Origin: an uncultured Alphaproteobacteria bacterium
GTDB taxonomy: Bacteria; Pseudomonadota; Alphaproteobacteria; Rhizobiales; Ancalomicrobiaceae
Length of the DNA: 51,043 nucleotides
Assembly: GCA_937864925.1 (NCBI GenBank)
Contig: CALMFH010000080.1
Location: forward strand, 1-51,043
Direction: 5' to 3'
This document shows positions 1 to 16,265 of this stretch, piece after piece. The notes beneath the pieces were generated by a model. It saw only the letters and a program-made list of their open reading frames with translations, was not told the DNA's origin and did no database searches. The translations under genes were made by a program, and so were the position numbers. Numbering within the stretch: the first letter of the stretch is position 1; every line of letters begins with the position of its first letter.

Positions 1-9
1 ATGAGTTGA

Positions 10-55
10 TTGGCGACCCCGGCACGATTCGAACGTGCGACCAACAGCTTAGAAG
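10..55. repeat. attL: 46-bp direct repeat (tRNA-Arg 3' half)
   Basis: Identical over 46 bp to 12678-12723. It corresponds to nucleotides 32-76 of the tRNA-Arg(TCT), from the first base of the anticodon loop to the encoded CCA, plus one flanking T. The match stops abruptly at both sides (base 9 versus 12677, base 56 versus 12724). This is the displaced 3' end of the original host tRNA gene, left behind when the element inserted. Confidence 0.93.
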
Positions 56-259
56 TCAAATTGGTCTATAGGACACGATCGGACACCGCCGGCCGCCAGC
101 ATCCGCTATATACCATTGATACTGAATACTTTCTACGGGATGTCCCGCACTGTCCTAGACAGTTGTGGACGGTCCAAGCCACCTCGAGTATGCTACCCCC
201 ATGTTACCCCGATCGACCAACAGAAACGGCGCTCGGTTTCAATATGAGGGTTTCTTGCA
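56..259. promoter_or_regulatory. attL-integrase interval with a palindrome
   Basis: A 204-bp stretch without a supported gene between attL and the integrase. It is less GC-rich than its surroundings. It holds a 6-bp inverted repeat, ACTGTC-cta-GACAGT, at 149-163, and a short direct repeat GGACAC at 71-76 and 81-86. Such sites next to an integrase are often arm-type integrase or excisionase binding sites, or the integrase promoter. That role is inferred only from position. Confidence 0.35.
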
Positions 260-1555
260 ATGGCGAAGGCCCTGACCGTCAAAGCCATCGATGCCGTCAA
301 ACCCGGCTCGGCGCGTCGCGAGATACCCGATGGGCTGCTCGTCGGGCTCTACCTCGTGTGCCAGCCCTCCGGCGCGTTGAGTTGGGCTGTCCGCTATCGC
401 GTGGCCGGCGTTCCGAAGAAGCTCACGCTCGGGACCTACCCGGCGATCAGCCTCGCCTCAGCTCGCCAACTCGCGGGGCAGGCCCTGACCGCAGTGGCCG
501 AAGGCAGAGACCCCGGCGCCGAGAAGAAATCGGCTCGCCGGGCAGCGCTCGAGGCGCCGAAGGATGACGTCGCGGCGATCGTGGATCTCTACCTGGAGCG
601 TTACGCCAAGACCAACCTTCGGGAGAGTTCGCGGAAAGAGGCCGAACGCCTTCTCAAGAAGGAAGTGGTCGCCGCGTGGCGGGGCCGATCTATCAAGTCC
701 ATAGCGCGCCGGGACGTCGTCGACCTACTCGACGGGATCATCGACCGAGGGGCCGCAGTGACCGCCAACCGTGTTCTTGCGGCGGTACGGCGGCTTTTCA
801 ACTGGTGCATCGACCGAGGCGTGATCGAGGTTTCGCCGATCTCTGGCATGAAAGCACCGACCGTCGAGAAGAGCCGGGATCGGGTCCTCGCAGATGACGA
901 ATTGCGCCGCATCCTGAGGGCCGCAGACGGCCTCGGGTGGCCCTTCGGCCCCTTCGTCCGCCTCCTCACGCTCACCGGCCAACGGCTTTCCGAAGTCGGC
1001 GAAATGACATGGGAGGAGATCGACCGCGACAAGGCCGTATGGGTAATCCCGGCGCACCGCGCGAAGAACGGCGTTGCTCACGTCGTCCACCTCTCGCCGC
1101 AGGCACTCGCGGTCTTCGACGCACTCCCGAGGATCGCGAACGGCGCCAAAGAGTCGCCCCTGGTGTTCACAACAACAGGGCGTACGCCCGTCAGCGGGTG
1201 GTCGAACGCGAAGGACAAGATCAACGCCCTCGTCCTCGCCGAGTTGAAGGAAGAGGCTGTGGCGGCCGGCCTCGATCCGGAAGACGTTCGCCCCCTCCCC
1301 GACTGGCGGTTCCACGACCTCCGCCGAACGATGGCGAGCGGCATGGCCCGCCTCGGCGTGCAGATCCACGTCGTCGAGAAGGTGCTGAACCACGTATCCG
1401 GGTCTTTCGCCGGCATCGTGGGCGTCTACCAGCGGCACGATTTCGACGCCGAGAAGAAGGCCGCGCTCCTTGCGTGGGGTCGTCATGTCGCTTCGCTCGA
1501 AGCGATCGAGGAAACGAACGTCGTCGAGATGCGGGGACGGCGCGATGGTCAGTAA
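260..1555 (+). CDS. int: Tyrosine recombinase / phage integrase (P4-type)
   Basis: A 431-aa site-specific recombinase that would insert and excise the element at the tRNA-Arg gene. The N-terminus (about residues 1-90) is the DUF4102 arm-binding domain typical of P4-like integrases. A core-binding region follows at about 100-200, then the catalytic domain with R242 (in TGQRLSEVG), H352 and R355 (HDLRR), H378 and the nucleophile Y390 (GVYQRHDF). All key catalytic residues are present, so it should be active. It starts about 200 bp from attL and reads inward. Its 3' end overlaps the next gene by 11 bp. Full family length. Confidence 0.96.
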   Translation: MAKALTVKAIDAVKPGSARREIPDGLLVGLYLVCQPSGALSWAVRYRVAGVPKKLTLGTYPAISLASARQLAGQALTAVAEGRDPGAEKKSARRAALEAPKDDVAAIVDLYLERYAKTNLRESSRKEAERLLKKEVVAAWRGRSIKSIARRDVVDLLDGIIDRGAAVTANRVLAAVRRLFNWCIDRGVIEVSPISGMKAPTVEKSRDRVLADDELRRILRAADGLGWPFGPFVRLLTLTGQRLSEVGEMTWEEIDRDKAVWVIPAHRAKNGVAHVVHLSPQALAVFDALPRIANGAKESPLVFTTTGRTPVSGWSNAKDKINALVLAELKEEAVAAGLDPEDVRPLPDWRFHDLRRTMASGMARLGVQIHVVEKVLNHVSGSFAGIVGVYQRHDFDAEKKAALLAWGRHVASLEAIEETNVVEMRGRRDGQ

Positions 1556-2198
1556 GCCAACCGGGCGCCCTCGTGGCAGGCCCAAGAAGGCTCATGAGGT
1601 AGCCGCAGAACGACGCGAGAAACGTCGTATCGGACGTCCAACCGTGCACTTCCGGGAAGACCCAGATCGATTCTTGGTAGCATTGATCGACGCACTGATG
1701 CTCGCGAACGGATGGAGTGAACGTCGCGCATCGGTCGAGGTCGCGAAGCTGCAGGTTGGGCGCCCACTGACAAAGAGCGAGATAGACCAACTTTGGCCAG
1801 GGGCGCGTCTTGCGGCTCCGGACGGATGGGTGTTGACGGCCTACGGCCCGCCGATCAGCTCGTTTGGCGGCGCAAACGGACGCCTCTCGTCGAATACGCG
1901 CGTCGGCTCCCGATCTGGAACAATTGAGGGTCGCGCGGCGACGTTGCGCCAGAAGGCCCGGGAGTGGGAATCGGACATCGAAGCCAAACGCTGGCGCATC
2001 GCGATGGGCGCGGCGGCGCGGGTGGCAATCGCTCCCATCCCCGAGATGGCTAGCGCCAACGGCTTCGCCCACGCGCGGGTATTCATCAACGATTGTGTAG
2101 TGGCCGCCGGTGAATCGCGATCCACCGCGGACCATCTGATCGCCATGGCGGCACACTCGATCGGCGTGCGATCGCTGCCCGACTTTTCGCAAATTTAG
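1545..2198 (+). CDS. Hypothetical protein with basic AT-hook-like N-terminus
   Basis: A 217-aa protein starting at an ATG inside the last codons of the integrase gene (11-bp overlap), so translation is probably coupled. The N-terminus contains GRPRGRPKK, a motif resembling an AT-hook, followed by a charged stretch and a second GRP sequence, which suggests contact with nucleic acid. The rest has no motif I recognise. A longer reading from 1470 would overlap the integrase more and lacks support. By position it may help control integration or be an accessory gene of the element. Confidence 0.6.
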   Translation: MVSKPTGRPRGRPKKAHEVAAERREKRRIGRPTVHFREDPDRFLVALIDALMLANGWSERRASVEVAKLQVGRPLTKSEIDQLWPGARLAAPDGWVLTAYGPPISSFGGANGRLSSNTRVGSRSGTIEGRAATLRQKAREWESDIEAKRWRIAMGAAARVAIAPIPEMASANGFAHARVFINDCVVAAGESRSTADHLIAMAAHSIGVRSLPDFSQI

Positions 2199-2262
2199 CA
2201 TCCGGGCCGGTTTGCCCGGCATCTGGCTTTCCTTGTCTCGTCAGCAACAGACGAGGCACGAC

Positions 2263-2520
2263 ATGGCCCCCAATCGAAACCTGATTCCCCTCTCCCGCCC
2301 CGAACTGATCGGACTCGGCGTCGGCCGCCGCACTCTCGGCCGTTACATCACCAACCCGCCGCCCGGGTTCCCGACGCCGATCTACCAGAACGGCCGCATT
2401 TACTTCGCGTCGGACGAACTCGACGCCTACAAGGCGCAACTCGTCGCGACCGCGAACAGTGGCCAGCGGCGACAGCAGCCCGGTAGCGCCTCTCCGGCAT
2501 CGGAGGTGCACGATGGCTAA
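2263..2520 (+). CDS. AlpA-like helix-turn-helix protein (excisionase/regulator candidate)
   Basis: An 85-aa protein beginning at an ATG preceded by GACGAGG. The sequence LSRPELIGLGVGRRTLGRYI followed by a proline-rich turn and YFASDELDAY resembles the MerR/AlpA-type winged helix found in excisionases and AlpA activators next to P4-type integrases. Expected role: DNA binding to promote excision or to switch on element genes. The reading frame can be extended upstream to 2212, but the ATG at 2263 has the better ribosome site. It overlaps the following gene by 8 bp. Confidence 0.65.
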   Translation: MAPNRNLIPLSRPELIGLGVGRRTLGRYITNPPPGFPTPIYQNGRIYFASDELDAYKAQLVATANSGQRRQQPGSASPASEVHDG

Positions 2521-2722
2521 GCGCTCAGTGCGCCGCCCCCGCTCTCCCCAGCTCGACGCAACCATTTGCGACGGCCGCGAGACCGTTGGCAGGCTTATTT
2601 TCTTGGGCGCCGGCTGGCGAGCCGAAGGCCCGGATGGGAAGTCGCTCGGCGTCTACGAGAGCCGCGCCGAGGCCCGCGAAGCAATTTCGGAGGCGCGCAG
2701 CGGATGCGAGACAACCACCTGA
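2513..2722 (+). CDS. Small hypothetical protein
   Basis: A 69-aa basic protein. It starts at an ATG overlapping the end of the AlpA-like gene by 8 bp. The sequence has an Arg-rich N-terminus and a C-terminal segment (WRAEGPDGKSLGVYESRAEA) that looks like a small beta-alpha fold. No family recognised. The dense overlap with genes on both sides supports its being real. Confidence 0.5.
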   Translation: MAKRSVRRPRSPQLDATICDGRETVGRLIFLGAGWRAEGPDGKSLGVYESRAEAREAISEARSGCETTT

Positions 2723-2937
2723 TCGACCCAATCGAAAGCGCCCTCGACGCTTACGGACACGAGGTCGCGAGGGCGTTGGTTCGCCACGCCGGCTTCTCCC
2801 CGGCCCGGTCGTACGACGTCATGGGGGAAGCTCGCCGTTGCGTGATTTCTCACGTTGAAGCCGAAGAAGACCGCAGGGCGCGGCTTGCTGCCGTCGAAGC
2901 GGCTCACCGGTTGAAGGAGGAGCGCCGATATGCGTGA
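2704..2937 (+). CDS. Small hypothetical protein
   Basis: A 77-aa predicted all-helical, charged protein (IDPIESALDAYGHEVARALV and a C-terminus rich in Glu/Arg). It overlaps the preceding gene by 19 bp and the following one by 8 bp. It lies in the early module between the AlpA-like gene and the nuclease. No family recognised. Confidence 0.5.
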   Translation: MRDNHLIDPIESALDAYGHEVARALVRHAGFSPARSYDVMGEARRCVISHVEAEEDRRARLAAVEAAHRLKEERRYA

Positions 2938-3289
2938 TGCCTCCCGCAAGACCGGTGGCCGCCGCTCACGCGACAAGGGAAACCGCGTCGAACGTCACCT
3001 CGTGCGGTTCTTTCAAGACGCGGGCTTTGCCGCAGAACGCGTCCCGCTCTCCGGCTCGGCCGGTGGCTCCTACCTTGGCGACCTCACGGTGCCGTTGCTC
3101 GGTATCGATAGGGTCGTCGAGGTCAAGGCGCGCGCCGACGGCTTCCGCGAACTCTACGCGTGGCTCGAACGCCGGGATGTTCTGATCGTCAAGGCCGACC
3201 GCCGCGAACCGCTCGTCGTGGTCCCCCTGCGCTTGGCCGTGGCAGTCATGGCGGCCGCCGAGCACGGCAAGAATGGGGGCGCTCGATGA
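2930..3289 (+). CDS. PD-(D/E)XK nuclease, Holliday junction resolvase-like
   Basis: A 119-aa protein. It has the layout of small archaeal Hjc/phage resolvases: a basic N-terminus with E21 (GNRVERHLV), the loop LSGSAGGSYLGDL with D51, then E64 and K66 in VEVKA, completing the PD-(D/E)XK active site. It probably cleaves branched DNA arising during element replication or recombination. The stop overlaps the start of the ATPase gene by 4 bp, tying it to the replication module. The family fold assignment is firm; the exact substrate is inferred. Confidence 0.75.
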   Translation: MRDASRKTGGRRSRDKGNRVERHLVRFFQDAGFAAERVPLSGSAGGSYLGDLTVPLLGIDRVVEVKARADGFRELYAWLERRDVLIVKADRREPLVVVPLRLAVAVMAAAEHGKNGGAR

Positions 3290-4467
3290 ACGCTCCTCAC
3301 GATCCGGACAGAGGGGCGAAGCCACCCTCGATCGTTGCACGCCCTTTCGTCTGGCGAGATCCGGCGACGCTCCCGGCGCGGGCATGGGTCTATCCGTGGC
3401 ACTACATCCGGAAGTTCGTTTCGGTCACCGTCGCCCCCGGCGGGGTCGGCAAGTCCTCTCTCGTCATCGCCGAGGCCCTCGCCTTGGTTACAGACCGTAA
3501 CCTGCTCGGAACGAATCCCGCGGCGCCAGTGAGGGTGTGGTTGTGGAACGGCGAGGACCCCCGCGACGAGCTTCAGCGTCGTGTCACGGCTGCGATGGTC
3601 CATCACGGCATTGCCCCGGCCGAGATCGAGGGGCGCTTGTTCCTCAACTCCGGCCGCGAGGACGTGATCTGCATCGCAGTGCAGGACCGTCTCGGCGTAC
3701 GCGTCGCGGAGCCCAACGTCGACGCGATCACCCGGACAATCCGCGAGAACGCGATCGACGTCGTGATCATTGACCCGTTCGTCAGTTCTCACGCGGTCAC
3801 CGAAAACGACAACAACGCGATCGACCGGGTTGCCAAGACGTGGGCACGCATCGCCGATGCCACGAACACCGCGATCGAGTTGGTTCATCACTCGCGCAAG
3901 AATGGCGGATCCGAGACCACGGTCGAAGACGGGCGAGGCGCCGTTGCCCTCCTCGCCGCGGCCCGCGCGGCGCGCGTTCTCAACGTGATGACCAAGGAGG
4001 AGGCAGAGAGAGCCGGTGTCGAGCGCCACCACGAGTACGTCCGCATCGACGACGGCAAAGCCAACCTCACCCCCATGTCGGAAGCCTCCCAATGGTTCCG
4101 AAAGGTCGGGGTCCATCTGTGGAACGGTCCCGGCGGCACGGGTGGAGACAGCGTCGGCGTCGCGACCGCCTGGAGTTGGCCAGATCCGTTTGACGATCTG
4201 TCGGCCCGCGACCTTCGGGCCGTTCAGGTCGCAGTATCACGAGGACGCTGGCGGAAGGACGCACAAGCCAAGGATTGGGTGGGACATCCGATCGCCGAGA
4301 CCCTCGGCATCGACATTGCCGACAAGTCAGGCAAGTCCCGCGTAAAGGCATTGCAGCGGGTATGGACCGATACCGGCGTTTTGATCGAAGTCATCGAAAA
4401 GGACGAGCGGCGGATGGAAAGGACCTATGTCCGAGCGTCCGCCCAGGACCAAGGTGAGGCGCCATGA
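3286..4467 (+). CDS. RepA-like AAA/RecA-fold ATPase (replication helicase candidate)
   Basis: A 393-aa protein starting at ATG 3286, in a 4-bp overlap with the resolvase-like gene. Walker A is GGVGKS at residues 52-57, the LWNGEDP motif around 86-92 is typical of RepA/RSF1010-type hexameric helicases (AAA_25), and Walker B is VVIIDPF with D163. A C-terminal winged-helix-like tail follows (about 310-380). It probably drives element replication. It is followed at once by an iteron-like repeat region, as expected for a replication initiator or helicase next to its origin. Confidence 0.82.
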   Translation: MNAPHDPDRGAKPPSIVARPFVWRDPATLPARAWVYPWHYIRKFVSVTVAPGGVGKSSLVIAEALALVTDRNLLGTNPAAPVRVWLWNGEDPRDELQRRVTAAMVHHGIAPAEIEGRLFLNSGREDVICIAVQDRLGVRVAEPNVDAITRTIRENAIDVVIIDPFVSSHAVTENDNNAIDRVAKTWARIADATNTAIELVHHSRKNGGSETTVEDGRGAVALLAAARAARVLNVMTKEEAERAGVERHHEYVRIDDGKANLTPMSEASQWFRKVGVHLWNGPGGTGGDSVGVATAWSWPDPFDDLSARDLRAVQVAVSRGRWRKDAQAKDWVGHPIAETLGIDIADKSGKSRVKALQRVWTDTGVLIEVIEKDERRMERTYVRASAQDQGEAP

Positions 4468-4490
4468 TCCCCTGCCCCACCGCCCCACCA

Positions 4491-4599
4491 CCTCACCTTC
4501 CTATAAGAAGGTGAGGCAGGTGAGGCAGTGAGGCAAACGCGGTTTTGCGCCGAACCGCCGAACCTCGCTGCGCCGAACCTTTTCGTGGTGAGGCACCAC
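4491..4599. repeat. Iteron-like GTGAGGCA repeats and hairpin (putative origin or control site)
   Basis: Directly after the ATPase gene is a perfect 10-bp inverted repeat, CCTCACCTTC (4491-4500) and GAAGGTGAGG (4507-4516), with loop CTATAA. Exact copies of GTGAGGCA follow at 4511, 4520, 4528 and 4588, and GTGAGGCG sits at 4454 inside the gene. The 4588 copy lies in a palindrome, GTGGTG-agg-CACCAC. Clustered short repeats with a hairpin beside a RepA-like gene suggest a replication origin. The alternative is a transcription terminator or operator for the module boundary. The hairpin is not followed by a T-run. Confidence 0.55.
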
Positions 4600-4885
4600 T
4601 AACGCGAGGACAAGCGACGACTGGACGCGCGAACGAGAGCATCGTCCTTTCATCACCGCCAAAATCGCCCATTTTTTCGGGGCGACGTACGACCGATCAG
4701 ACGACCACTTCCGACCGCATGAAATTGGCTCCGGCACCGGCGGCCGATCTCTTCGCGCCTACATCTGTTCTACAAGCTGTTGGTTATGTCCAAGAGTGTC
4801 TTTGTTTGTCGATATTTACGCCATTTCTGCGTCTTGATATCCTAATCGGGTAACGCATGGGTATTGAGCGGAGCGATTTCCGAGC
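4600..4885 (+). promoter_or_regulatory. AT-richer leader before the packaging genes
   Basis: This gap of nearly 300 bp has no convincing gene. A hairpin TCGCCC...GGGCGA brackets a T-run around 4664-4685. The stretch 4780-4855 is strikingly AT-rich for this DNA, which fits a promoter for the packaging/morphogenesis operon. I cannot define -35/-10 boxes with confidence. An open frame at 4545-4853 crosses it but has no ribosome site and no recognisable protein features. Confidence 0.35.
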
Positions 4886-5299
4886 ATGTCGGACGCTACA
4901 ACGACCATAGTCATCGACAAGAGGAAAGGCCGGTCGCGCCTGTCGAACGGTCTCGCCCGCCTGTCCGATGTCGACGGCCGTTCGATGTGGGCGCGGCGTC
5001 TTCGGGACGTGGTCGCGGCGCACATAGCGGACCTCGGCGGCGAGGCGGCGACCTCTGAGGCCGAGCGGTCGATCATCCGGCGGGCGGCGACGCTGACCAC
5101 TGAACTCGAGAGGCTCGAGGCTCGGTTTGCGTCTGCAGGTGAAGCCGCTCCGGCGGACCTGGACCTGTACCAGCGCACCGCCGGCAACCTTCGCCGCCTC
5201 CTCGAGAGCGTCGGCCTCAAGCGCGTGCCGAAGGACGTGACGCCGGACTTGAAGACCTACATCGACGCCAAGGGCTCCAAACGCGAGGGCGGCCGATGA
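4886..5299 (+). CDS. terS: Terminase small subunit-like protein
   Basis: A 137-aa protein immediately upstream of, and overlapping by 4 bp, the large terminase gene. It has a basic N-terminus (DKRKGRSRLSNG), a long helical middle with a coiled-coil-like stretch (residues about 60-110) and a basic C-terminal tail ending KREGGR. Size and position fit a phage small terminase that selects element DNA for packaging. Sequence motifs in this family are weak, so the call rests mainly on context. Confidence 0.65.
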   Translation: MSDATTTIVIDKRKGRSRLSNGLARLSDVDGRSMWARRLRDVVAAHIADLGGEAATSEAERSIIRRAATLTTELERLEARFASAGEAAPADLDLYQRTAGNLRRLLESVGLKRVPKDVTPDLKTYIDAKGSKREGGR

Positions 5300-6702
5300 A
5301 CATTCTCGAGGCCCTTGACGACGACCACCTCTTCCGCGGCGCCATCCGAAACCATTCGACATGGCAGGCATGGCGGGCTTTCCTGGCAGCTCTGTTCGGG
5401 CTCCCGATGTCCGATACCGAGGCCGACGTCTACCGGGCTTGTACGGGCCGCGAAACGCTTCCTCAGCGCTCTTTCGAAGAGGCATGGCTCGTCTGCGGTC
5501 GCCGCGCCGGCAAGTCGTTCACGATGGCGCTCACGGCGGTCTTCCTCGCCTGTTTCCGGGAGTACGGCGAGTACCTCGCCCGAGGCGAGCGCGCGACTAT
5601 CATGGTGATTGCGGCCGATCGGAAGCAAGCCCGCGTGATCATGCGCTATGTCCGCGGGCTGCTGACCATTCCCATGCTCGCCCGACTGATCGAACGCGAA
5701 ACCTCCGACGGATTCGATCTCACGGGCTCCGTGACGATCGAGGTAGGCACGGCATCGCACCGCGCGGTTCGCGGTTACACGATCGCCGCCATCCTTGCTG
5801 ACGAGATCGCCTTCTGGCCGACCGACGAGGGGAGCGCGTCGCCCGATACCGAGATCCTCGCGGCCCTTCGTCCGGCGATGGCGACAATTCCGGGCGCGAT
5901 GCTGATCGCCGCTTCCTCGCCGTACGCCAAGCGCGGAGCGATGTGGGAGGCGTTCCGCCGGTATTTCGGGAAAGACGGGGCGCCGGTCCTCGTCTGGCGA
6001 GCGTCGACGCGGACGATGAACCCGACGGTGCCGCAATCGGTCATCGACGAGGCCATGGAGCGCGACACCGCGTCGGCGAGTGCCGAGTATCTCGCCGAGT
6101 TCCGCTCCGACATCGAGAGCTTCATTGCCCGCGAGGTCGTCGATGCCGTGACCATCCCCGGTCGCTTTGAATTGCCGCCCATGGCGGCGGCGAACTACGT
6201 CGCGTTCGTCGACCCGTCCGGCGGATCGGCGGACTCGATGACGCTGGCGATTGCGCACACCGAGGGCGAGGTCGCAGTCCTCGATGCGGTGCGCGAGGTC
6301 AAGCCTCCCTTCTCGCCGGATGGTGTGGTTCAGGACTTCGCCGCGCTACTGAGGCTCTACCGGGTCCATCGGATCACGGGCGACAGGTACGCCGGTGAAT
6401 GGCCTCGGGAACGATTCCGCGCCGCTGGCATCGCCTACGAGCCGAGCGAGCGAGCGAAGAGCGAAATCTACGGCGCGTTCCTACCGCTCGCGAACTCCCG
6501 TCGGGTCGAATTGCTCGACCTTCCCCGCATCTCGTCGCAGTTGACCGGCCTCGAGCGTCGCACGGCCCGTGGGGGCCGCGACACGATCGACCACGGCCCC
6601 GGGCAACACGACGATCTCGCGAACGCCGTGGCGGGCGCCCTGGTGCTCGCCGACGTCCCCCAACCGACCTCTTCGGTCGAACCTCTGAGGATCTGGGCAT
6701 GA
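5296..6702 (+). CDS. terL: Phage terminase large subunit (packaging ATPase/nuclease)
   Basis: A 468-aa DNA-packaging motor. The ATPase domain has the Walker A-like CGRRAGKS (residues 67-74), a segment IMVIAADRKQAR (102-113), Walker B ILADE (166-170) and a coupling SSPY (207-210). The RNase H-like nuclease domain follows, with D306 (VDPSGG), a GDRYAGEW segment and QHDDLANA near the end as the last acidic motif. The protein appears complete and of normal family length. It would translocate element DNA into a prohead, yet no portal or capsid gene is nearby. Confidence 0.92.
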   Translation: MNILEALDDDHLFRGAIRNHSTWQAWRAFLAALFGLPMSDTEADVYRACTGRETLPQRSFEEAWLVCGRRAGKSFTMALTAVFLACFREYGEYLARGERATIMVIAADRKQARVIMRYVRGLLTIPMLARLIERETSDGFDLTGSVTIEVGTASHRAVRGYTIAAILADEIAFWPTDEGSASPDTEILAALRPAMATIPGAMLIAASSPYAKRGAMWEAFRRYFGKDGAPVLVWRASTRTMNPTVPQSVIDEAMERDTASASAEYLAEFRSDIESFIAREVVDAVTIPGRFELPPMAAANYVAFVDPSGGSADSMTLAIAHTEGEVAVLDAVREVKPPFSPDGVVQDFAALLRLYRVHRITGDRYAGEWPRERFRAAGIAYEPSERAKSEIYGAFLPLANSRRVELLDLPRISSQLTGLERRTARGGRDTIDHGPGQHDDLANAVAGALVLADVPQPTSSVEPLRIWA

Positions 6703-6986
6703 CCCCGCTCGAAACGTTGCAATCCAAACAGACCGCGGCCGGCGACCGCTATGCGAAGGCCGTCGCCGAACTTCGCGAGGCGTTCATCGATCTCGCCGCC
6801 ATCGATCGGGCGATCGGAAATCGGAACGTCTCCGATCGGCATGTCGCGACCTTCACCGACATGCCGTCGGTGCCCTGCTTCCTCTCCCATCCGGTCTTCG
6901 CGCCGCTCCCGCCGAGCGAACTTCGGTGGGATCACGAGATCGCCGCCGTTCACGAAACCTACGTCTCGAGCGTCACCAACGCCTGA
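6699..6986 (+). CDS. Hypothetical protein after terminase
   Basis: A 95-aa protein whose ATG overlaps the terL stop by 4 bp. The first half is a single long helix (LESLQ-type, KAVAELREAFIDLAAIDRAI), the second is rich in Pro and Phe. No family recognised. In a normal prophage this slot holds the portal gene, but this protein is far too small to be one. Confidence 0.6.
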   Translation: MTPLETLQSKQTAAGDRYAKAVAELREAFIDLAAIDRAIGNRNVSDRHVATFTDMPSVPCFLSHPVFAPLPPSELRWDHEIAAVHETYVSSVTNA

Positions 6987-6997
6987 GGAGGTGCCGA

Positions 6998-7636
6998 ATG
7001 TCCTTCCATCACAAAGCAAATCAGTTCCTGGAGCGCATGCCGGCCGGCACGTTCGACCATGTACGCGAGAGCGTCACGACGGCCTTCGGCGTTGCGGCCG
7101 GTTTCAAGGAGAAGGTCGAGAAGATCGTCGCCGACAAGCGGCTCTCCGACACCGGGCACAAGGAGAAGATCGTCGATGTCCTCCGCGGCGGCCCGATCTC
7201 TCACCTCAAGCAGTTGCGCCGGATCGCTGGGGAGCGGCTCAAGGCTCTCGAAGAGACCCGGGCGAAGTGTCAGCCGGTCCTCGACAAGTCCGACATGTTC
7301 GCCGAGGTCCAGCGTCAGGAGATCCGGGCGTGGCTTCGCGGTATGCCCGAGGCGGAGCGGCTCCGTGTCGCCTATGAAACGCCGGATCGGATGGTGCGGG
7401 AGGCGATCGCCTTCGCGATCCCGGCACTGTCCGGCCTCAACGACGAGGCGAAGGCGTTCGTCGTCTCCGCGATGATCCAGGACGCACACGGCGAACGTCT
7501 CGCCGAGATCAATCACCTCTCGGAGATCTACGAGGCCGAGACGCTGGCGATCGACGAGGCCACCGCGGACTTGCGCCGCGCGAGCGGGCTCGAACAGGCA
7601 GCGTTCTCGCGAGTGTGGGAGACAACGGCCGAATGA
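6998..7636 (+). CDS. Hypothetical all-helical protein
   Basis: A 212-aa protein with a good ribosome site (GAGGAGG, 6986-6992). The sequence is predicted almost entirely alpha-helical, with charged segments (FKEKVEKIVADKRL, LKALEETRAK). No transmembrane segment or catalytic motif. It sits between the terminase and the tail assembly genes and overlaps the next gene by 4 bp. It could be a scaffold-like, head-tail or tail accessory protein. No family recognised. Confidence 0.65.
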   Translation: MSFHHKANQFLERMPAGTFDHVRESVTTAFGVAAGFKEKVEKIVADKRLSDTGHKEKIVDVLRGGPISHLKQLRRIAGERLKALEETRAKCQPVLDKSDMFAEVQRQEIRAWLRGMPEAERLRVAYETPDRMVREAIAFAIPALSGLNDEAKAFVVSAMIQDAHGERLAEINHLSEIYEAETLAIDEATADLRRASGLEQAAFSRVWETTAE

Positions 7637-7779
7637 CCTTCCTCGACCAATTCCTTCGCCGAGCGGTCGCCATAGACGGAGGCGCGGTCCTTCGTCTGAT
7701 GGCTGCGCCGAAACTTCCGATGCCGGGAGCGCCCCCGCGTCCCCTGTCCACCGCCCCCACCAATCGAGGTGATGCATGA
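7633..7779 (+). CDS. 48-aa hypothetical microprotein
   Basis: A 48-codon frame linked by ATGA overlaps at both ends (7633-7636 with the upstream stop, 7776-7779 with the downstream start). The protein starts MTFLDQFLRRAVAIDGGAVL and ends in a Pro-rich tail (PKLPMPGAPPRPLSTAPTN). The perfect double overlap suggests it is translated, perhaps chiefly to couple its neighbours. Function unknown. Confidence 0.55.
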   Translation: MTFLDQFLRRAVAIDGGAVLRLMAAPKLPMPGAPPRPLSTAPTNRGDA

Positions 7780-8117
7780 CCCCGTCCGACGAAATCCTCT
7801 CCCGCTATGCTCGTGTCGAGCGCGCCACCGACGCCCTCGGGCGCGTCATCGGCGTCAAGAAGCTCCGTCCGATCGATCAGGCGAAGGCCATCGACTTCGC
7901 CGGCACCGGGCCGGACAGTTTCATGGCCAGCCTGTACCTCGCCGCCATGGCCGTGTGCGAAATCGACGGAGATCCGATTCCGTCGGCCAAGAGTTCCGAA
8001 GAGCTGGCGACCATCGTCAACATCCTCGACGAGGAAGGACTTTCGGCCATCCGAGAGGGCCTCTCTCGCTTCCAGCCCAAGACGCCCGAGGAGGTCGTCG
8101 CCAAGGCGGGGGAATGA
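7776..8117 (+). CDS. Tail assembly chaperone-like protein (lambda gpG position)
   Basis: A 113-aa acidic protein in the place that lambda gpG occupies, two genes before the tape measure protein. Features are an N-terminal helix (SDEILSRYARVERATDALGR), a segment FMASLYLAAMAVCEIDG and a Glu-rich C-terminus. Such chaperones coat the tape measure protein before the tail tube forms. Its stop overlaps the next start by 4 bp, and the next gene lies in the -1 frame, as in the lambda G-T arrangement. The call is from position and composition. Confidence 0.55.
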   Translation: MTPSDEILSRYARVERATDALGRVIGVKKLRPIDQAKAIDFAGTGPDSFMASLYLAAMAVCEIDGDPIPSAKSSEELATIVNILDEEGLSAIREGLSRFQPKTPEEVVAKAGE

Positions 8118-8287
8118 GCCGGGACCCGGTGACGCGAGGGGCACTCGCCCTCGTGATGCACGGGGTCCCGTTCGATGTGGCCTTCGCGCTCGATCCCGCC
8201 GAGATGCTCGCTTGGACCGTGATCATCGGCGAGGCGAACGGCGGTCGGTTCGATTGGGACGCGATGACGTGGCGGCACGACGATTGA
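8114..8287 (+). CDS. Small tail accessory protein (gpT-like position)
   Basis: A 57-aa protein in the -1 frame relative to the chaperone-like gene, overlapping its stop by 4 bp (ATGA at 8114). The sequence VTRGALALVMHGVPFDVAFA and a Trp-rich end (WDAMTWRHDD) resemble the short second chaperone ORF found before tape measure genes in many alphaproteobacterial phages. It may be made alone or as a frameshift extension of the upstream protein: the upstream gene ends GCG GGG GAA TGA, with a run of five Gs. Confidence 0.55.
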   Translation: MSRDPVTRGALALVMHGVPFDVAFALDPAEMLAWTVIIGEANGGRFDWDAMTWRHDD

Positions 8288-8315
8288 GCCGCCGGCCCGA
8301 TCTGGGGGAAATGCA

Positions 8316-10022
8316 ATGTCCGGCATCTACGACGTGCTCGTGAAGATTTCGATGGTGAACGGCGTCTCGCCCGTGATCGCCGTCATCGCGAGGGACCTCC
8401 TCGGCCTCCATGGGTCCGTCAACAGCCTCAGCCGGACCTTGAAGACGGCATTCGGCGCCACCGTGATCGGGACCGGCCTCGCGGCCCTCGGCTTCAAGGA
8501 GGTCATCCATCACGCCAAGGGCCTGAGCCATGAGCTGACGCAACTCCAGAAGCTCGGCATCGGTGATCTCCAACTCTCCGAGGCCCGAGCGTCGGCCCTC
8601 GAAACCACCAGGGCCGTCCGCGGCGTAACCGAGGTGGAAGCGCTCAAGACCTACGGAGCGACCTACTCGATCTTCGGGCACGAGGGCGCGCTCAAGCTCA
8701 TGAAGCCGCTCGCCGAGTTCGCCCAGGTCGTCGGCAACAACTCCGAGAGCTACGATCGAGCCGTCGAGAACGTCTACAAGATGGTGCGCGCCGGCGACCT
8801 CATGGGCAAGTTCGTCAACGAGGCGACGCACAAGGTCGACCCCGACAAGCTGCAGCACTTCCTCGACCTCGGCGCGAAGGTGGTCTCCTCCACCCACGGC
8901 TACGTCAACGAAAACACCTGGCTGGCGATGGCGCAGCAGGGCGGCCCGGCCCTGTCCGGGATGTCGGATCGCGGTCTCATCACCATGGCGCTCCTGTCGC
9001 AGGCGATGGGCGGCTATCGTGCCGGCACCGCCATGATGTCGGAGTTTCAGCAGCTCGTCGGCGGGCGCATGCCGCAGTACGCCGGCAAGCGGCTGCATGA
9101 ACTCGGGCTCGTCGGTGACTACACCGTCGGTCGCGGCGGGCACCTGATCTGGAACGAGGGCGCGCTCGATACCGAGTTCATCCGCCTGCTCAAGGACGAC
9201 CAACTCAAGGGCGTCGAGTTCCTCATGGGCCGGCTCAAGGAGCGTGGTTACGACACCACCGACAAGATGGTGCCGGTCCTCTTCGAGATCTTCGGTCGCC
9301 AGACGACGGTTCGGGCCATCCACGACATGGTGCGGAACTTCCCGCAGATGATGGGCGAGGTTCCGCGTATCGAAGCCGGTATGGGGGTGAAGGACGCGAA
9401 GAAGGCCGCGGACGAGAACGACATCGTCCAGGCCGAACGGAACTTTCACGCCGCTTGGACGAACATGATGGTCGCCATCGCAGGACCGCAGTCGAAGAAC
9501 GCCATAGCCGTCCTCGACAAGCTGGCGGAGTTCTTCCGGTGGATCGGCGAGAAGGTCCGCACGATCGATTTCTCGACGTTCAAAGGCATCATCGAGAGAC
9601 TCGTCGACACGGTTCGTGGAATATTCGGTCAAATCGCCGCGGGATGGGCCATGATCTCGGAAGGTCTTTCTCGGCTCTATAAGCTGGCTACGGATGCCGC
9701 CCAAGGGATTATCGACCTCGCCAATGCGATTGCAGAGCTACCCGGAAAGATCAAAGCGGCAATCCTCGGCATGTCGCAACTGCCGGGCGACTACAATAGC
9801 AGAGGCCCCCTCGGGCGACATGATGACGGAAGCCGTTACGGACCCGATGGAGCTCGAATCCCGCCCATCCCCGGCAAGCAATCGAACCTCACCATCCACA
9901 ACCACACCTATCTCGACGGCAGGCAGGTGGCGTATTCGGTCGAACGGCATCTCGTCGACCATCACCAGTACCCGACCAGGGCGCCGGGCGGCGACGGGTT
10001 CGCCATGCCGGCGTACGGGTGA
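8316..10022 (+). CDS. Phage tail tape measure protein
   Basis: A 568-aa protein. It begins with the typical TMP pattern: a short beta-like start (IYDVLVKISMVNGVSPVIAV), a helix with linker, then a hydrophobic GATVIGTGLAALGF segment. A long helical middle holds glycine-containing hydrophobic stretches (AWTNMMVAIAGP, IAAGWAMISEG). The C-terminus ends with a beta segment LTIHNHTYLDGRQVAYSVER common in tape measure proteins. It sets tail length. At about 0.15 nm per helical residue, 568 residues would specify roughly 85 nm. Ribosome site is weak (GGGGGAA). Confidence 0.8.
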   Translation: MSGIYDVLVKISMVNGVSPVIAVIARDLLGLHGSVNSLSRTLKTAFGATVIGTGLAALGFKEVIHHAKGLSHELTQLQKLGIGDLQLSEARASALETTRAVRGVTEVEALKTYGATYSIFGHEGALKLMKPLAEFAQVVGNNSESYDRAVENVYKMVRAGDLMGKFVNEATHKVDPDKLQHFLDLGAKVVSSTHGYVNENTWLAMAQQGGPALSGMSDRGLITMALLSQAMGGYRAGTAMMSEFQQLVGGRMPQYAGKRLHELGLVGDYTVGRGGHLIWNEGALDTEFIRLLKDDQLKGVEFLMGRLKERGYDTTDKMVPVLFEIFGRQTTVRAIHDMVRNFPQMMGEVPRIEAGMGVKDAKKAADENDIVQAERNFHAAWTNMMVAIAGPQSKNAIAVLDKLAEFFRWIGEKVRTIDFSTFKGIIERLVDTVRGIFGQIAAGWAMISEGLSRLYKLATDAAQGIIDLANAIAELPGKIKAAILGMSQLPGDYNSRGPLGRHDDGSRYGPDGARIPPIPGKQSNLTIHNHTYLDGRQVAYSVERHLVDHHQYPTRAPGGDGFAMPAYG

Positions 10023-10211
10023 TCGGATCTACGCCGACTGCCGGATTATCAGCACGCCGTGGCTCGCCACAACGAGGTGCCCCCACATCCGTCGAACGGC
10101 TACTATGTTTAGACAGGTGTTCGGTTCGCGCAACGTTTGCCGGTGTCCGCTTAGGTGCGGAAGAAGCCGGTAGAGGTAGCGGCGCGCGCGATTTCAATGC
10201 CCGCGTGCGCA
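10023..10211. other. Intergenic stretch after tape measure gene
   Basis: A 189-bp gap between the converging tape measure and XRE repressor genes. I see no gene, no clear hairpin with a T-run and no RNA motif here. Confidence 0.4.
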
Positions 10212-10454
10212 TCACGCCTTCCTCAGCCTCACGCCCGCGCCTTCGCCATTCTCCGGAACGAAGATGACGCCGGCCTCTTCGAGGGCGCGCTGAACCGCGG
10301 CGACGTTAGGGGCTGTCATATTGACGATGCCATCGATGAGTTCTGCTCGCCGTATCGTCGCGACTCCGACACCAGAGGCTTTGGCTAGGTCATCGGCCGT
10401 CCATCGGATTAATGCCCTGGCTGCTCGGATTTGAGACCCGGTGATATTCGGCAT
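10212..10454 (-). CDS. XRE-family helix-turn-helix transcriptional regulator
   Basis: An 80-aa regulator with a full HTH: ITGSQIRAARALIRWTADDL, then AKASGVGVATIRRAEL as turn and recognition helix, and a C-terminal segment AVQRALEEAGVIFVPENG typical of small XRE proteins in alphaproteobacteria. It is the only gene on the minus strand in the middle of the element and is divergent from 10541. It probably represses the element. The direct repeats over its start are likely operators. Confidence 0.85.
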   Translation of the reverse strand: MPNITGSQIRAARALIRWTADDLAKASGVGVATIRRAELIDGIVNMTAPNVAAVQRALEEAGVIFVPENGEGAGVRLRKA

Positions 10455-10513
10455 ATCAAACGATCTTCCATTGACATGATGCGCATCGAATGATAGCCCT
10501 CATATCACACGAT
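10452..10513. promoter_or_regulatory. Divergent promoter region with paired operator-like repeats
   Basis: Two 13-bp direct repeats, CATATCAAACGAT (10452-10464) and CATATCACACGAT (10501-10513), differ at one base and lie 49 bp apart. The first overlaps the ATG of the XRE gene, the second lies just upstream of the gene at 10541. Between them is a perfect TTGACA (10471-10476), a plus-strand -35 candidate, with weak -10 options GATAGC/TGATAG. The layout fits an autoregulated switch. Binding is inferred. Confidence 0.5.
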
Positions 10514-10540
10514 GGTTGAGAGATCAAAGGAGATCCCCAG

Positions 10541-10747
10541 ATGACCACCGTCCCGCTCGCCACTCTCTTCCGCTCCGCCGCCCTTCGCGAGGCCTTCGCC
10601 AAAGGCGCCGCGGACGCCATGGACGCCTTCCTCGTTCCGGTGGGCATCACCCCGCGGAAGCCGCTCTCGACCGCCGTGGAGGCCCGCAGGCCTCGCCCCG
10701 TGCTCGCCGGTGGCGCCGCCGCCGTCCGTAATCTCGAACTCGCGTGA
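10541..10747 (+). CDS. Small hypothetical protein
   Basis: A 68-aa protein with a strong ribosome site (AAAGGAGAT, 10526-10534) before the ATG. The first half (LATLFRSAALREAFAKGAAD) looks helical, the second is basic and Pro/Ala-rich. It is the first gene of the rightward unit controlled by the divergent promoter. No family recognised. Confidence 0.55.
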   Translation: MTTVPLATLFRSAALREAFAKGAADAMDAFLVPVGITPRKPLSTAVEARRPRPVLAGGAAAVRNLELA

Positions 10748-10756
10748 GGTGCTTCG

Positions 10757-11245
10757 ATGACGAACCGTGAGGACTTGCGATCCTATTCGCTTTCTCACCA
10801 CGGGCGCTCGATCACGATCGACGTCGACCGGCTGCGGTCATACTCGATCGGTGAACTTGCGGCGCTCTCCGATGCGATGTTTGCGGCGGGCGATGCCCTC
10901 GCCGGCTTCTATCACCACGCCGGGCTGAACTTACCGATCGACGATCCGCGCCTTGCGGCTATCGGCGTTACCGATTGGACGCCGGCCGGCAAGTTCTTCG
11001 ACGAGGTGGTCTCATGGACCGGATGCCTCCGCGATCTCGCCATCACGGCGCTCCGCGAGAAGGTGCCGCGCGATCAGTTGGAAGCGAAGACCAAGGGCTT
11101 CGCCGTCATGCGCTACCTCGGCTCGCTCGAGGACGATGAGGAGGAGGTGATCCACGTCGTCGCCGAGATGGCCCAGGCGATGCGAGATTTCGACGCCACC
11201 GAACGGCAGACACGGCAGACTTTGAACAGGGAGATCGCCAGATGA
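10757..11245 (+). CDS. Hypothetical protein
   Basis: A 162-aa soluble protein, second gene of the rightward accessory unit. It starts 9 bp after the previous stop, with GAGGTG as ribosome site. Helical segments include GELAALSDAMFAAGDALAGF and a Glu-rich C-terminal part (DDEEEVIHVVAEMAQAM). No motif recognised. Its stop overlaps the next ATG by 4 bp. Confidence 0.6.
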   Translation: MTNREDLRSYSLSHHGRSITIDVDRLRSYSIGELAALSDAMFAAGDALAGFYHHAGLNLPIDDPRLAAIGVTDWTPAGKFFDEVVSWTGCLRDLAITALREKVPRDQLEAKTKGFAVMRYLGSLEDDEEEVIHVVAEMAQAMRDFDATERQTRQTLNREIAR

Positions 11246-11559
11246 CCCACGCCAACACCGCTACCGGCGGGCCGCCGGAAATCCGGGATTTCGAACTCGG
11301 CAGGCTCTTCAAGGCCGCGTCCGGGATGGAAGACCCGATCGCCACGTTGCGGGATCTTCTGCGGGCGATCTTCGCCGTCGTGAACGGCGATGGTGCCATG
11401 CCCGACGAGCGCGACGTTCTTGCCGTGATGTGCCTGACTCGGCTCTGCGAGCGCACCATCAACGAAATCGAGGGCGCGCGCGGCGAACTCTTCGAAGGGC
11501 TGCACCCCTACGCCTATGGCCCTGAGGTCCCGGAAGAGAACGCCGGGGGTACCCCGTAG
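11242..11559 (+). CDS. Hypothetical protein
   Basis: A 105-aa protein joined to the preceding gene by a 4-bp overlap. It is mostly helical (PIATLRDLLRAIFAVVNGDG; LCERTINEIEGARGELFEGL) with a Pro-rich end. No family recognised. Length, overlap and codon use support a real gene in the accessory unit of the element. Confidence 0.55.
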   Translation: MTHANTATGGPPEIRDFELGRLFKAASGMEDPIATLRDLLRAIFAVVNGDGAMPDERDVLAVMCLTRLCERTINEIEGARGELFEGLHPYAYGPEVPEENAGGTP

Positions 11560-11635
11560 ACCCTTGGCGTCCATCAATTCCGCTGTATATTCGAACCATT
11601 CATATCAGCGTGGTTGATGCGAAAGGCGGTGTCCG

Positions 11636-12136
11636 ATGGCAGAGAACGCGCGTTCCGCTCACGAAGTCTGCGCCGACCTCGGGATCGAGATCATTCGGCC
11701 CGGCCGGCGCACCGCGGCCGACGTCCTGCAGACTTGCGCCGAGCGAAGAATCGAAAAGATGCTCATCGAGCACGGCGAAGGGCACGTCATCTTCACGCTG
11801 CGGACCATCGCCGAGACGGAAGGAAACTCCGGTGAGCTGGTCGCCTTCACGATCGAGGCCGTCTCGCGGCTCGTGCGAGATCATCCTCGTTGGACAGACC
11901 TCGGGACCAAATGGCTCGAAGCATTCGACAAGATCGACCTTCCGGCGATCCGCAACCTGTGCCGACAGAACCGCGCGATCGTGCCCATGGCAGACGGGAT
12001 AACCACGCTCGTGTTCGATCGACTCCTCGACCTCCTCGGCGATCCCTCACCCCCAGGGAAGTGCAAGGGACGGGGGAAGCCCCGCGGGCGTCGGAAGATA
12101 CCGGCGACGGTGGAAGCTGCCTCTATGGCCCTCTGA
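11636..12136 (+). CDS. Hypothetical protein
   Basis: A 166-aa protein following a 76-bp gap, where a separate weak promoter could lie. It has an alpha/beta-looking N-terminal half (VLQTCAERRIEKMLIEHGEGHVIFTLRTIAET), a helical middle and a basic tail (KCKGRGKPRGRRKIP) that may touch nucleic acid. Its 3' end overlaps the converging KilA-N gene by 14 bp. No family recognised. Confidence 0.6.
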   Translation: MAENARSAHEVCADLGIEIIRPGRRTAADVLQTCAERRIEKMLIEHGEGHVIFTLRTIAETEGNSGELVAFTIEAVSRLVRDHPRWTDLGTKWLEAFDKIDLPAIRNLCRQNRAIVPMADGITTLVFDRLLDLLGDPSPPGKCKGRGKPRGRRKIPATVEAASMAL

Positions 12137-12632
12137 GATCCACAACGAGGCCGGTGGCTTCGGGTGGCGCGGCGGCCGGGAGGCTTGGCGGCCTCCCGGC
12201 CAACCTCTCGGTCACGCCGAGATGTGGCCGACGCGCTTTTTGGGGAAGGGGATTCGTCGACCCAATTGGAAGCGCCATCCTCGCGGCACGGCCGGGGAAG
12301 GGCAACCCCTGGAACTCGGGCGAGCGGTACTTCGCGTAGGCAAGGGCGATCTGCCAGTGGGCGAAGGTTACGCCGCCGATGCCGCGGCCGCCACGTTTTG
12401 CTTGGACCCCAGAATTTCCGGGTTCCATGAGATCGAGAGCGTCAACGAAGCGACGAGCATCCGCGGAACCAAGCCAGTTGGATGGCTGGCGGGCCGGATC
12501 TGAGCCGTGGGACTTCCACATGTCGGTGAGCGAGAGCATGTCGCCGCGGTCGTGGATCGCAGCGCCTGAGGTGGGAGTTTCCACGACGCCAACGTTACCC
12601 GTGGCGTTACCCCGGAGACAGAATCCAGCCAC
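12123..12632 (-). CDS. KilA-N domain protein
   Basis: A protein of up to 169 aa (GTG start at 12632; the true start may be further in). It contains the KilA-N signature: LSLTDMWKSHGSD, then PSNWLGSADARRFVDAL, and FAHWQIALAYAKYRSPEF. KilA-N proteins are phage-encoded DNA-binding regulators. The C-terminus after the domain is short and basic, without the second domain often found, so it may be a minimal form or a 3' truncation. It is the last gene before attR and reads back into the element. Confidence 0.75.
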   Translation of the reverse strand: MAGFCLRGNATGNVGVVETPTSGAAIHDRGDMLSLTDMWKSHGSDPARQPSNWLGSADARRFVDALDLMEPGNSGVQAKRGGRGIGGVTFAHWQIALAYAKYRSPEFQGLPFPGRAARMALPIGSTNPLPQKARRPHLGVTERLAGRPPSLPAAAPPEATGLVVDLRGP

Positions 12633-12677
12633 CGCAGCAAAGTCAAGGCGAGGATGACATTGATTTAAAACGATAAT

Positions 12678-12723
12678 TTGGCGACCCCGGCACGATTCGA
12701 ACGTGCGACCAACAGCTTAGAAG
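12678..12723. repeat. attR: 46-bp direct repeat
   Basis: Exact copy of 10-55. Here it forms the 3' 45 nt of the functional tRNA-Arg gene, so the element rebuilt the tRNA on insertion. The identity block starts at the first base of the anticodon loop, which marks the region where strand exchange must have occurred. Confidence 0.93.
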
Positions 12724-12754
12724 GCTGTCGCTCTATCCCCTGAGCTACGGGGCC
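12679..12754 (-). tRNA. tRNA-Arg (anticodon TCT)
   Basis: A 76-nt cloverleaf on the minus strand. The acceptor stem GGCCCCG pairs with CGGGGTC (one G-U), discriminator G and encoded CCA. The anticodon stem is ACAGC/GCTGT with loop CTTCTAA, giving anticodon TCT. The T-stem GCACG/CGTGC has loop TTCGAAT. All arms are intact although its 3' half is supplied by the integrated element. Confidence 0.97.
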
Positions 12755-12884
12755 GCGAGCGCGGACGGGTGGCCGCGCGGCCGCCGCGGTGAGGCGGCGG
12801 AACTCGCTGGCGCCGCCGACGCGGCGACAGTCCCGGCAAGGCCGACCCACCCGGCCCCGCACCGACCACGGGCGACGACCGACC

Positions 12885-13190
12885 TCAGTGGGTCCAGGTG
12901 CCGACGCGGCCGTATTTGAAATTGTCGGAGTAGGACGTCGTCTTCGCCGTCTTCTCCTTCGGCTCGACCACCCGGTAGGCGATCCCCTTGCGCTCGGCGT
13001 AGGCGATCGCCTCTTCCTTGGTGGCGAACCACAGCCGGATCTGGGCGGCCGCATCGGAGGTCGACGTCCACCCCATCAGCGGGTCGACTGTCTTCGGCGC
13101 CGTCGGCTCGTAGTCGAGCAGCCACCGCTGCGACTTGCCCTGACCCGACTGCATGACGTTCTTGGCCGGTCGAGAGATGCGCGCCACCAT
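12885..13190 (-). CDS. NADH dehydrogenase accessory subunit, NDUFS4-like
   Basis: A 101-aa protein of the ETC complex I NDUFS4/18-kDa family. Recognisable features are the N-terminal ARISRPAKNVMQSG, the middle DPLMGWTSTSD and RLWFATKEEAIAYAERKGI, and the C-terminal YSDNFKYGRVGTWTH, which is highly conserved from alphaproteobacteria to mitochondria. It is an accessory subunit of respiratory complex I on the cytoplasmic side. It stands alone here, between two tRNA genes, as is usual in this group. Full length. Confidence 0.92.
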   Translation of the reverse strand: MVARISRPAKNVMQSGQGKSQRWLLDYEPTAPKTVDPLMGWTSTSDAAAQIRLWFATKEEAIAYAERKGIAYRVVEPKEKTAKTTSYSDNFKYGRVGTWTH

Positions 13191-13300
13191 GTCGTCCGTC
13201 GTCCTCGTCTGTCGACGGGGCTCGCGCCCCGTCCGGTGTCTGTCGACGGGCCCGATGCCCGCCCGCTCGTTCGTCCCCCGCGCGAGACCCGCAGGCGGTT

Positions 13301-15760: not shown

Positions 15761-15787
15761 GGGGCGATCATAGCGGCTCGGAGGAAC

Positions 15788-16252: not shown

Positions 16253-16265
16253 GGCGCCGCCACGA

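What the first reader, a model, noticed from the sequence alone, without database searches (positions are those of the whole stretch)
10..12723. Compact satellite-like element with terminase and tape measure but no capsid genes
Seen: intact 46-bp att repeats, integrase with all catalytic residues, RepA-like ATPase, TerS/TerL, tail chaperone-like genes and a tape measure protein in one overlapping gene array, yet no portal, capsid, protease or tail tube. Known satellites usually borrow helper virions, and the capsid-forming ones carry head genes. Here the opposite set is kept: packaging motor plus tail-length ruler. Inference: the element may package itself into helper heads and redirect tail length (about 85 nm from 568 residues).
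Basis: partly seen in the sequence, partly recalled or inferred. Interest (0 to 1): 0.85.

Follow-up and report, generated by a model that had tools for sequence, protein, structure and literature searches.

The report
Phage satellite with motor and tail-ruler
A 12.7-kb integrated element carries its own DNA-packaging motor and a tail-length ruler protein but no detected shell or tube parts; it belongs to a widespread, apparently unnamed family of phage satellites that seem to borrow the bricks of a helper phage and supply some of the tools that arrange them.

Summary
The element is real: a perfect 46-bp repeat brackets 12.7 kb, one copy forming the 3' end of a tRNA-Arg gene, and a same-genus genome holds the empty site. 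Integrase, Hjc-type nuclease, RepA-like ATPase, TerL (motifs intact) and a 568-aa tape measure protein (TMP) are supported; TerS and chaperone genes rest on position only. No portal, capsid, protease or tube was detected. It is not a fresh deletion remnant: its TerL lies among portal-less elements, and 36 elements (window included) bracketed by exact repeats, 9-18 kb, 29 at tRNA genes, share integrase and TerL. None has a detected portal; 34 have a TerS-like gene, 11 a TMP, 8 a head protease, 2 a capsid protein, 13 a helical protein (g236) not found in phage records. Best reading: a satellite with its own packaging motor that builds chimeric virions from helper parts, as V. cholerae PLEs do with TMP and hub (Nature 2026). 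Tail-length change is not shown: two relatives have TMPs about as long as a related phage's. No helper was identified; in the host genome the only portal and HK97-type capsid hits belong to a GTA-like cluster.

The parts
10..55 (.). attL, left copy of the 46-bp direct repeat
   Evidence: exact repeat; window 1-55 equals the last 55 bases of own-genome contig C279 reversed, i.e. the left host flank
260..1555 (+). tyrosine integrase (431 aa)
   Evidence: PF00589, PF13356, phrog_1; motifs
1497..2198 (+). ORF of unknown function after int
   Evidence: only a weak AT-hook hit, E 0.084; no PHROG
2212..2520 (+). excisionase-like HTH protein (102 aa)
   Evidence: phrog_66, E 7e-5
2930..3289 (+). Holliday-junction-resolvase-like nuclease (119 aa)
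   Evidence: phrog_244, E 1.5e-15; Hjc PF01870, E 2e-5
3286..4467 (+). RepA-like AAA ATPase, probable replication protein (start at ATG 3286 is my choice; the open frame begins at 3160)
   Evidence: PF13481, E 6.8e-37; phrog_25693; GGVGKS and VVIID
4886..5299 (+). putative small terminase TerS (137 aa)
   Evidence: position only: homologue within 200 nt of called terL start in 83 of 92 loci; no HMM or fold support
5296..6702 (+). large terminase TerL (468 aa)
   Evidence: phrog_2, E 7e-27; motifs; invariant columns in an alignment of 15 sequences, window included; profile match to T4 gp17, E 0.0055
6699..6986 (+). ORF of unknown function (95 aa), start overlapping terL stop
   Evidence: sequence; no Pfam or PHROG hit
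6998..7636 (+). g236: all-helical satellite protein, candidate head-assembly factor (start at ATG 6998 is my choice; open frame from GTG 6926)
   Evidence: homologues downstream of TerL in 13 of 36 complete elements, window included; AF2 pLDDT 91, all helix; no fold match at E<=0.001; no phage record by tblastn
7776..8117 (+). 113-aa ORF before tmp, possible tail assembly chaperone
   Evidence: phrog_20383, unknown function; no Pfam at E<=0.05; position only
8114..8287 (+). 57-aa ORF overlapping the previous stop in the -1 frame, possible chaperone T-like part
   Evidence: sequence; no hit
8316..10022 (+). tape measure protein (568 aa)
   Evidence: tblastn to TMPs of P2-like Burkholderia phages, best E 5e-9; phrog_305, E 1e-4; homologues in L054, L085, L108
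10212..10454 (-). small HTH-like regulator (80 aa), homologues in several relatives
   Evidence: tblastn hits in L001, L004, L005, L006, L018; weak HTH hits below cut-off
10757..11245 (+). ORF of unknown function (162 aa)
   Evidence: no Pfam or PHROG hit
11242..11559 (+). ORF of unknown function (105 aa)
   Evidence: no Pfam or PHROG hit
11636..12136 (+). g166, unknown, in 6 of 36 complete elements, window included
   Evidence: phrog_22699, unknown function
12123..12632 (-). KilA-N domain regulator (169 aa)
   Evidence: PF04383, E 3e-7, over its cut-off; phrog_129, E 5e-16
12678..12723 (.). attR, right copy of the repeat, inside tRNA-Arg
12679..12754 (-). tRNA-Arg(tct), integration target
   Evidence: ARAGORN

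Best explanation
It is an integrated phage satellite of a family that carries its own large terminase. Shown from sequence: integration at tRNA-Arg, own replication-type ATPase, large terminase with intact motifs, a TMP, no detected head or tube genes, and many other repeat-bracketed elements with integrase and this TerL. Inferred: on infection or induction by a helper it excises and replicates; its terminase loads its DNA into heads made of helper portal and capsid protein; g236 adapts head assembly (perhaps to a smaller head); and its TMP, perhaps with chaperone-like partners, replaces the helper's TMP inside a tail built from helper tube and baseplate proteins, as shown for V. cholerae PLEs. 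The result is a chimeric virion selective for the satellite.
For: Exact att in tRNA-Arg and an empty site in same-genus genome G282 (942 bp at 87% across the junction). TerL motifs intact. 36 elements, window included, with exact repeats bracketing TerL, 29 of them at a tRNA, median 12.6 kb; 0 of 36 with a hit to portal HMMs made from phage relatives. PF04860 portals occur in 14 of 31 genomes that hold 34 of these loci, none inside an element: most differ by coordinates, and the 4 places whose numbers fall in an element's range do not read there (3-12 stops in frame). The window TerL sits in a supported set of 33 rows (13 of them bracketed elements) without a portal-bearing row (SH-aLRT 96). 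TMP in 11 of 36. L064 and L082 carry homologues of several assembly genes of one Rhizobium phage genus (protease-scaffold, TMP, gpV-like and neck in L064; TMP, neck and a small ORF in L082) while no ORF of the 36 elements hits that phage's portal, capsid or the genes I take for sheath and tube (E<=1e-3). The window's g236 has no match in 50,697 phage records; a profile finds it in 16 of 397 genomes of the order. Precedent: PLE TMP and hub found in virions, tails about 10 nm shorter (PMC12987554, passages).
Against: No helper, no packaged DNA and no induction data. TerS and chaperones unproved. The TMP's PHROG scores are weak and the query also draws coiled-coil artefacts. 25 of 36 complete elements have no TMP by my clusters, and two repeat-bracketed elements with a TMP or TMP-like protein lack this TerL, so motor plus ruler is not a fixed unit. 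My replication clusters label only 16 of 36 elements. L060 and L125 carry a capsid protein. Portal detection used local HMMs and PF04860 only; some long ORFs in other elements stay unidentified. Six of the 36 rest on repeats of 15-18 bp.
Confidence: 0.7

Rival explanations
1. Deletion remnant: a former prophage that lost its head and tube genes.
For: TerL is shared with portal-bearing phages (12 loci, all viral contigs), and portal-bearing and other TerLs intermix at depth (4 changes for 9 phage rows).
Against: Exact att, open ORFs and intact motifs, 85% coding; many elements of similar size with integrase and TerL and no detected portal in many genera; no portal-bearing row in the supported set of 33 that holds the window.
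Confidence: 0.06
2. Same kind of satellite, but the TMP matters for DNA ejection or entry, or for escaping tail-targeting defences, not for tail length (a variant of the best explanation, not exclusive of it).
For: L082 and L064 TMPs are about as long as those of the related Rhizobium phages. PLE11 TMP lets it escape Rta, which targets the helper TMP (PMC12987554).
Against: TMP homologues of the window differ in the middle while the ends are kept (413-494 in the window against 429-758 in L054), which fits a length change; PLE tails did shorten.
Confidence: 0.3
3. The TMP (and g236) are decoys that poison helper tail or head assembly, an interference or defence device rather than virion parts.
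For: Proteins that target TMP are known defences (Tab, PMC10884400 passages; Rta).
Against: Those are TMP-targeting proteins, not TMPs; a TMP-sized protein with conserved N- and C-terminal blocks fits a working part; PLE TMP was found in virions.
Confidence: 0.08
4. The helper is the resident gene transfer agent, whose heads the satellite terminase hijacks.
For: The only PF04860 portal and PF05065 capsid hits in the host genome lie in a GTA-like cluster.
Against: The TMP resembles P2-like phage TMPs; the GTA portal frame has an in-frame stop; GTA heads are thought too small for 12.7 kb (recalled); the family also lives in gammaproteobacteria.
Confidence: 0.02

Closest known systems
Vibrio cholerae PLE satellites
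   Same: Integrated satellite encoding a TMP; PLE11 also a tail chaperone and a baseplate hub. Relatives of the window (L001, L006, L018) carry hub-family genes (phrog_196), and L001 a chaperone (phrog_1688).
   Different: The window has its own TerL; the PLE paper has no mention of terminase in its main text. Shared genes were not tested. Hosts differ. No hub found in the window.
Capsid-forming PICIs (cf-PICIs)
   Same: Own small and large terminase; depend on helper tails; some carry putative tmp genes (ED Fig. 10 legend).
   Different: cf-PICIs encode portal, capsid, protease and connectors (PMC10690885 passage); the window has none detected.
Streptomyces satellites MulchRoom and MiniFlayer
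   Same: Satellites with TerS and TerL.
   Different: They encode portal, capsid and scaffold and lack known primases.
Pseudomonas AH14b
   Same: 16.8-kb satellite thought to use a helper's capsid, with its own primase.
   Different: No terminase found by its authors.

Membership tests
Phage satellite (general) | Compact integrated element with integrase and replication genes | tested here: met
Phage satellite (general) | Lacks genes for a full virion | tested here: met
   no portal, capsid, tube, sheath or fibre hits in scanned ORFs
Phage satellite (general) | Mobilised in virions of a helper phage | not testable with these tools
   needs induction or infection and particle sequencing
cf-PICI | Own portal and major capsid protein | tested here: not met
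   no Pfam or PHROG hit in the window; local portal and capsid HMMs none in the window
cf-PICI | Own large and small terminase | tested here: inconclusive
   TerL met; TerS by position only
PLE | TMP gene | tested here: met
PLE | Tail assembly chaperone gene | tested here: inconclusive
   position only
PLE | Homology to V. cholerae PLE genes | not tested
   no PLE sequence was compared
P4-like / classical PICI | Sid, Psu, Rpp or CpmAB-type helper-redirecting genes | not tested
   no such profile was run on its own; no hit of these names appeared
Gene transfer agent | GTA structural cluster in the element | tested here: not met
   no structural hit other than TMP in the element; the GTA-like cluster is on another contig, C186

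The most novel reading that the evidence does not exclude
A widespread, unnamed class of satellites whose strategy is to encode the arranging tools of virion assembly (packaging motor; scaffold, protease or g236; chaperone; ruler; hub; neck) while taking the bricks (portal, most often capsid, tube) from a helper, so that head, tail and packaging are reprogrammed by swapping tools rather than bricks.
Probability: 0.35. Interest if true: 0.85.

Novelty: new variant of a known kind. Interest (0 to 1): 0.7.

Why it matters
Satellites were known to remodel heads; [quoted passage not shown] Here TMP genes turn up in a separate TerL-bearing satellite lineage, several in named strains (Methylobacterium sp. 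UNC378MF, Sinorhizobium fredii USDA 205, Shinella fusca DSM 21319). That makes it directly testable whether tail reprogramming is general, and whether the benefit is length, entry or escape. g236 is a new candidate head-assembly factor.

Tried and rejected
Deletion remnant: disfavoured. General tail shortening: not upheld, as L082 and L064 TMPs match the phage length. A co-resident P2-like or sheath-bearing helper: none by PF04860, PF05065, PF04984 outside the GTA-like cluster. A canonical X XXY YYZ slippery site before tmp: none found in the window by the script; the ATGA overlap may mean coupled translation instead. TerS by profile or fold: inconclusive. g236 fold: no match at E<=0.001. g236 against scaffold-like c70, protease c7, c9, c60, c247, c213, c94, c93 by hhalign: no clear relation; c193 relates, E 1e-7. 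TMP relatives in viral contigs by back-translated patterns: none. DNA match of the element to phages: none. One of the four TMP genome hits, G052, is a chemotaxis receptor, so it was set aside as an artefact; L134's 900-aa protein has no PHROG hit and stays only TMP-like. L098 contig ends share 51 bp, of which 18 bp recur in L110 and L112; it may be a circular form, not settled. g236 and protease never co-occur (13 and 8 of 36, chance 0.016, not corrected for relatedness).

Rows dropped before counts: L032 (the window itself) from element and tree counts; L026 and L065 had no TerL called and loci with under 4 kb after TerL were not listed; TerL rows under 380 aa left out of the tree. TerL rows of L002 and L064, L004 and L073, L016 and L036, L022 and L025, L035 and L045 are the same by branch length; of these L064 and L073 are among the 36. 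The repeat search needed a called integrase, so complete elements may be missed; the 36 are the loci its listing printed. Seven of the 36 have no tRNA at the repeat: L062, L070, L084, L098, L107, L117, L119.

Changed on checking: window ORFs first left unscanned were scanned, which added a KilA-N regulator; the claim that all elements share replication and TerS genes was cut to what bear; the portal places were checked against the elements; the coiled-coil artefacts were added.
Full report
What is there. The element spans 10-12723. Its ends are an exact 46-bp repeat, the right copy lying in tRNA-Arg(tct). Window bases 1-55 equal the end of contig C279 of the same genome, which is therefore the left flank. 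Host flanks joined without the element align over 942 bp at 87% to same-genus genome G282, across the junction: an empty site. The genome has 4.15 Mb in 290 contigs.

Genes. Integrase, excisionase-like protein, Hjc-type nuclease and an AAA_25 ATPase come first. TerL follows a putative TerS. TerL motifs are intact and many columns are invariant in an alignment of 15 sequences. After TerL come a 95-aa ORF, g236, small ORFs and the TMP; a KilA-N regulator lies at the right end on the other strand. The TMP matches TMPs of P2-like Burkholderia phages by tblastn (13 records in all, 10 of them Burkholderia, best E 5e-9); KL3's T protein has 1075 aa against 568 here. No portal, capsid, protease, tube or sheath was found in the ORFs scanned by Pfam and/or PHROGs. 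TerS and the chaperone-like ORFs are placed by position only.

Relatives. TerL relatives: 31 viral contigs; 11 of 397 genomes of the order, the window's included; and 181 loci in the species-genome collection, of which the best 80 were fetched. Portal HMMs built from the phage relatives hit 12 loci, all viral contigs, and none of the 80 genome-contig loci (flanks up to 10 kb, often less). The phages share the TerL, so the family has roots in phages, but the window TerL lies in a supported set of 33 rows with no portal-bearing row. TMP clusters occur in 29 of the 126 sequences examined, window included.

Complete elements. 36 sequences, the window included, have exact repeats of 15-58 bp that bracket TerL and lie near the integrase or a tRNA, 29 of them at a tRNA; lengths 8973-18107, median 12567. 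By local profiles: TerS-like 34, g236 13, head protease 8, TMP 11, capsid protein 2, neck 2, portal 0. A labelled replication cluster is in 16; a number of the others have unlabelled large ORFs in that place. Representatives were named by PHROGs: TMP, baseplate hub phrog_196, chaperone phrog_1688, ClpP-like head protease phrog_530 and 2229, capsid phrog_10, neck phrog_222. PF04860 portals occur in 14 of the 31 genomes that hold 34 of these loci. None lies inside an element: coordinates differ, and the four places whose numbers fall in an element's range (L054, L091, L119, L115) carry 3-12 stops when read there, so they lie on other contigs.

Whose tools? In L064 the protease, a scaffold-like ORF, TMP, gpV-like protein and neck protein, and in L082 the TMP, neck and a small ORF, match one Rhizobium phage genus, Kleczkowskavirus, at 28-60% identity; L060's TMP and L115's protease match it too. 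No ORF of the 36 elements matched that phage's portal, capsid or the structural genes I take for sheath and tube (E<=1e-3). That points to capture of arranging genes and to a possible helper type (inference). The TMPs of L082 and L064 are about as long as the phage's, against a general tail-shortening role.

TMP without TerL. In the window's bacterial family, G027 holds a 10.96-kb element with a 45-bp repeat in the same tRNA-Arg and a TMP of 793 aa (phrog_28, E 1.6e-11); G165 holds an 11.2-kb element with a 47-bp repeat at tRNA-Lys and a 900-aa protein similar to the window TMP but without a PHROG hit. Neither genome gave a match to this TerL. By the window TMP alone, 4 of 397 genomes of the order gave hits, the window's included; one of them, G052, is a chemotaxis receptor and an artefact.

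g236. Modelled as all-helical (pLDDT 91), without fold matches at E<=0.001. The window's g236 finds nothing in 50,697 phage records by tblastn at E<=0.01 (the family is divergent, so sensitivity is limited). A profile finds it in 16 of 397 genomes, the window's included; 8 of these also have this TerL, and in all 8 the two lie side by side by coordinates. It never shares a complete element with the protease. I propose a head-assembly factor; this is inference.

Helper. In the own genome the only PF04860 and PF05065 hits lie in a GTA-like cluster, and no PF04984 sheath was found. A virulent or absent helper, or one with other families, remains possible.

Literature. [quoted passage not shown] PMC10690885 (passages) lists what cf-PICIs encode. 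PMC4936722 (passages), PMC10884400 (passages), PMC11364771 (two passages in its reference list) and PMC12597102 (two passages) were also seen. I saw no description of this family in nine searches of the held library, as listings; that library lacks most subscription papers and bioRxiv, and the satellite survey I looked for was not held.

Verdict. A real satellite-type element with motor and ruler; member of a broad family; tail chimera likely by analogy, tail-length change unproved.

Noticed in passing
own-genome contig C279 (L146), about 6078-6110: A second, one-mismatch copy of the att core lies about 6 kb left of the element, suggesting repeated island insertion at this tRNA-Arg.
   Followed up: partly
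own-genome contig C186 (L132): A GTA-like cluster (GTA_TIM, DUF2460, portal, capsid); its portal frame contains one in-frame TAG.
   Followed up: partly
L148 3492-14493 (G027): A different element with a 793-aa TMP, an HTH protein 51% identical to the window's, and none of this TerL occupies the same tRNA-Arg in another genome of the family.
   Followed up: partly
L099 9648-12641; L125 4150-13810: Two gammaproteobacterial loci carry TerS-like, TerL and a major capsid protein with no detected portal; in L125 these sit in a 9.6-kb repeat-bracketed element.
   Followed up: partly
L084, L091, L119: Three elements of the family come from one MAG (G412), a Beijerinckiaceae bacterium.
   Followed up: no
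L098 1-51 and 14118-14168: Acetobacter pomorum contig with 51-bp identical ends near the integrase: possible circular form.
   Followed up: partly
G238:C6:1730547-1732808 (L042, L044): TerL is matched in two pieces with a gap of about 850 bases between them, next to g236: perhaps interrupted.
   Followed up: no
L060 15914-17293, L101 18042-19148, L115 14611-15885, L062 15955-16998: Distal ORFs hold T5orf172/DUF4041, HNH or DUF6602 domains, perhaps cargo.
   Followed up: no
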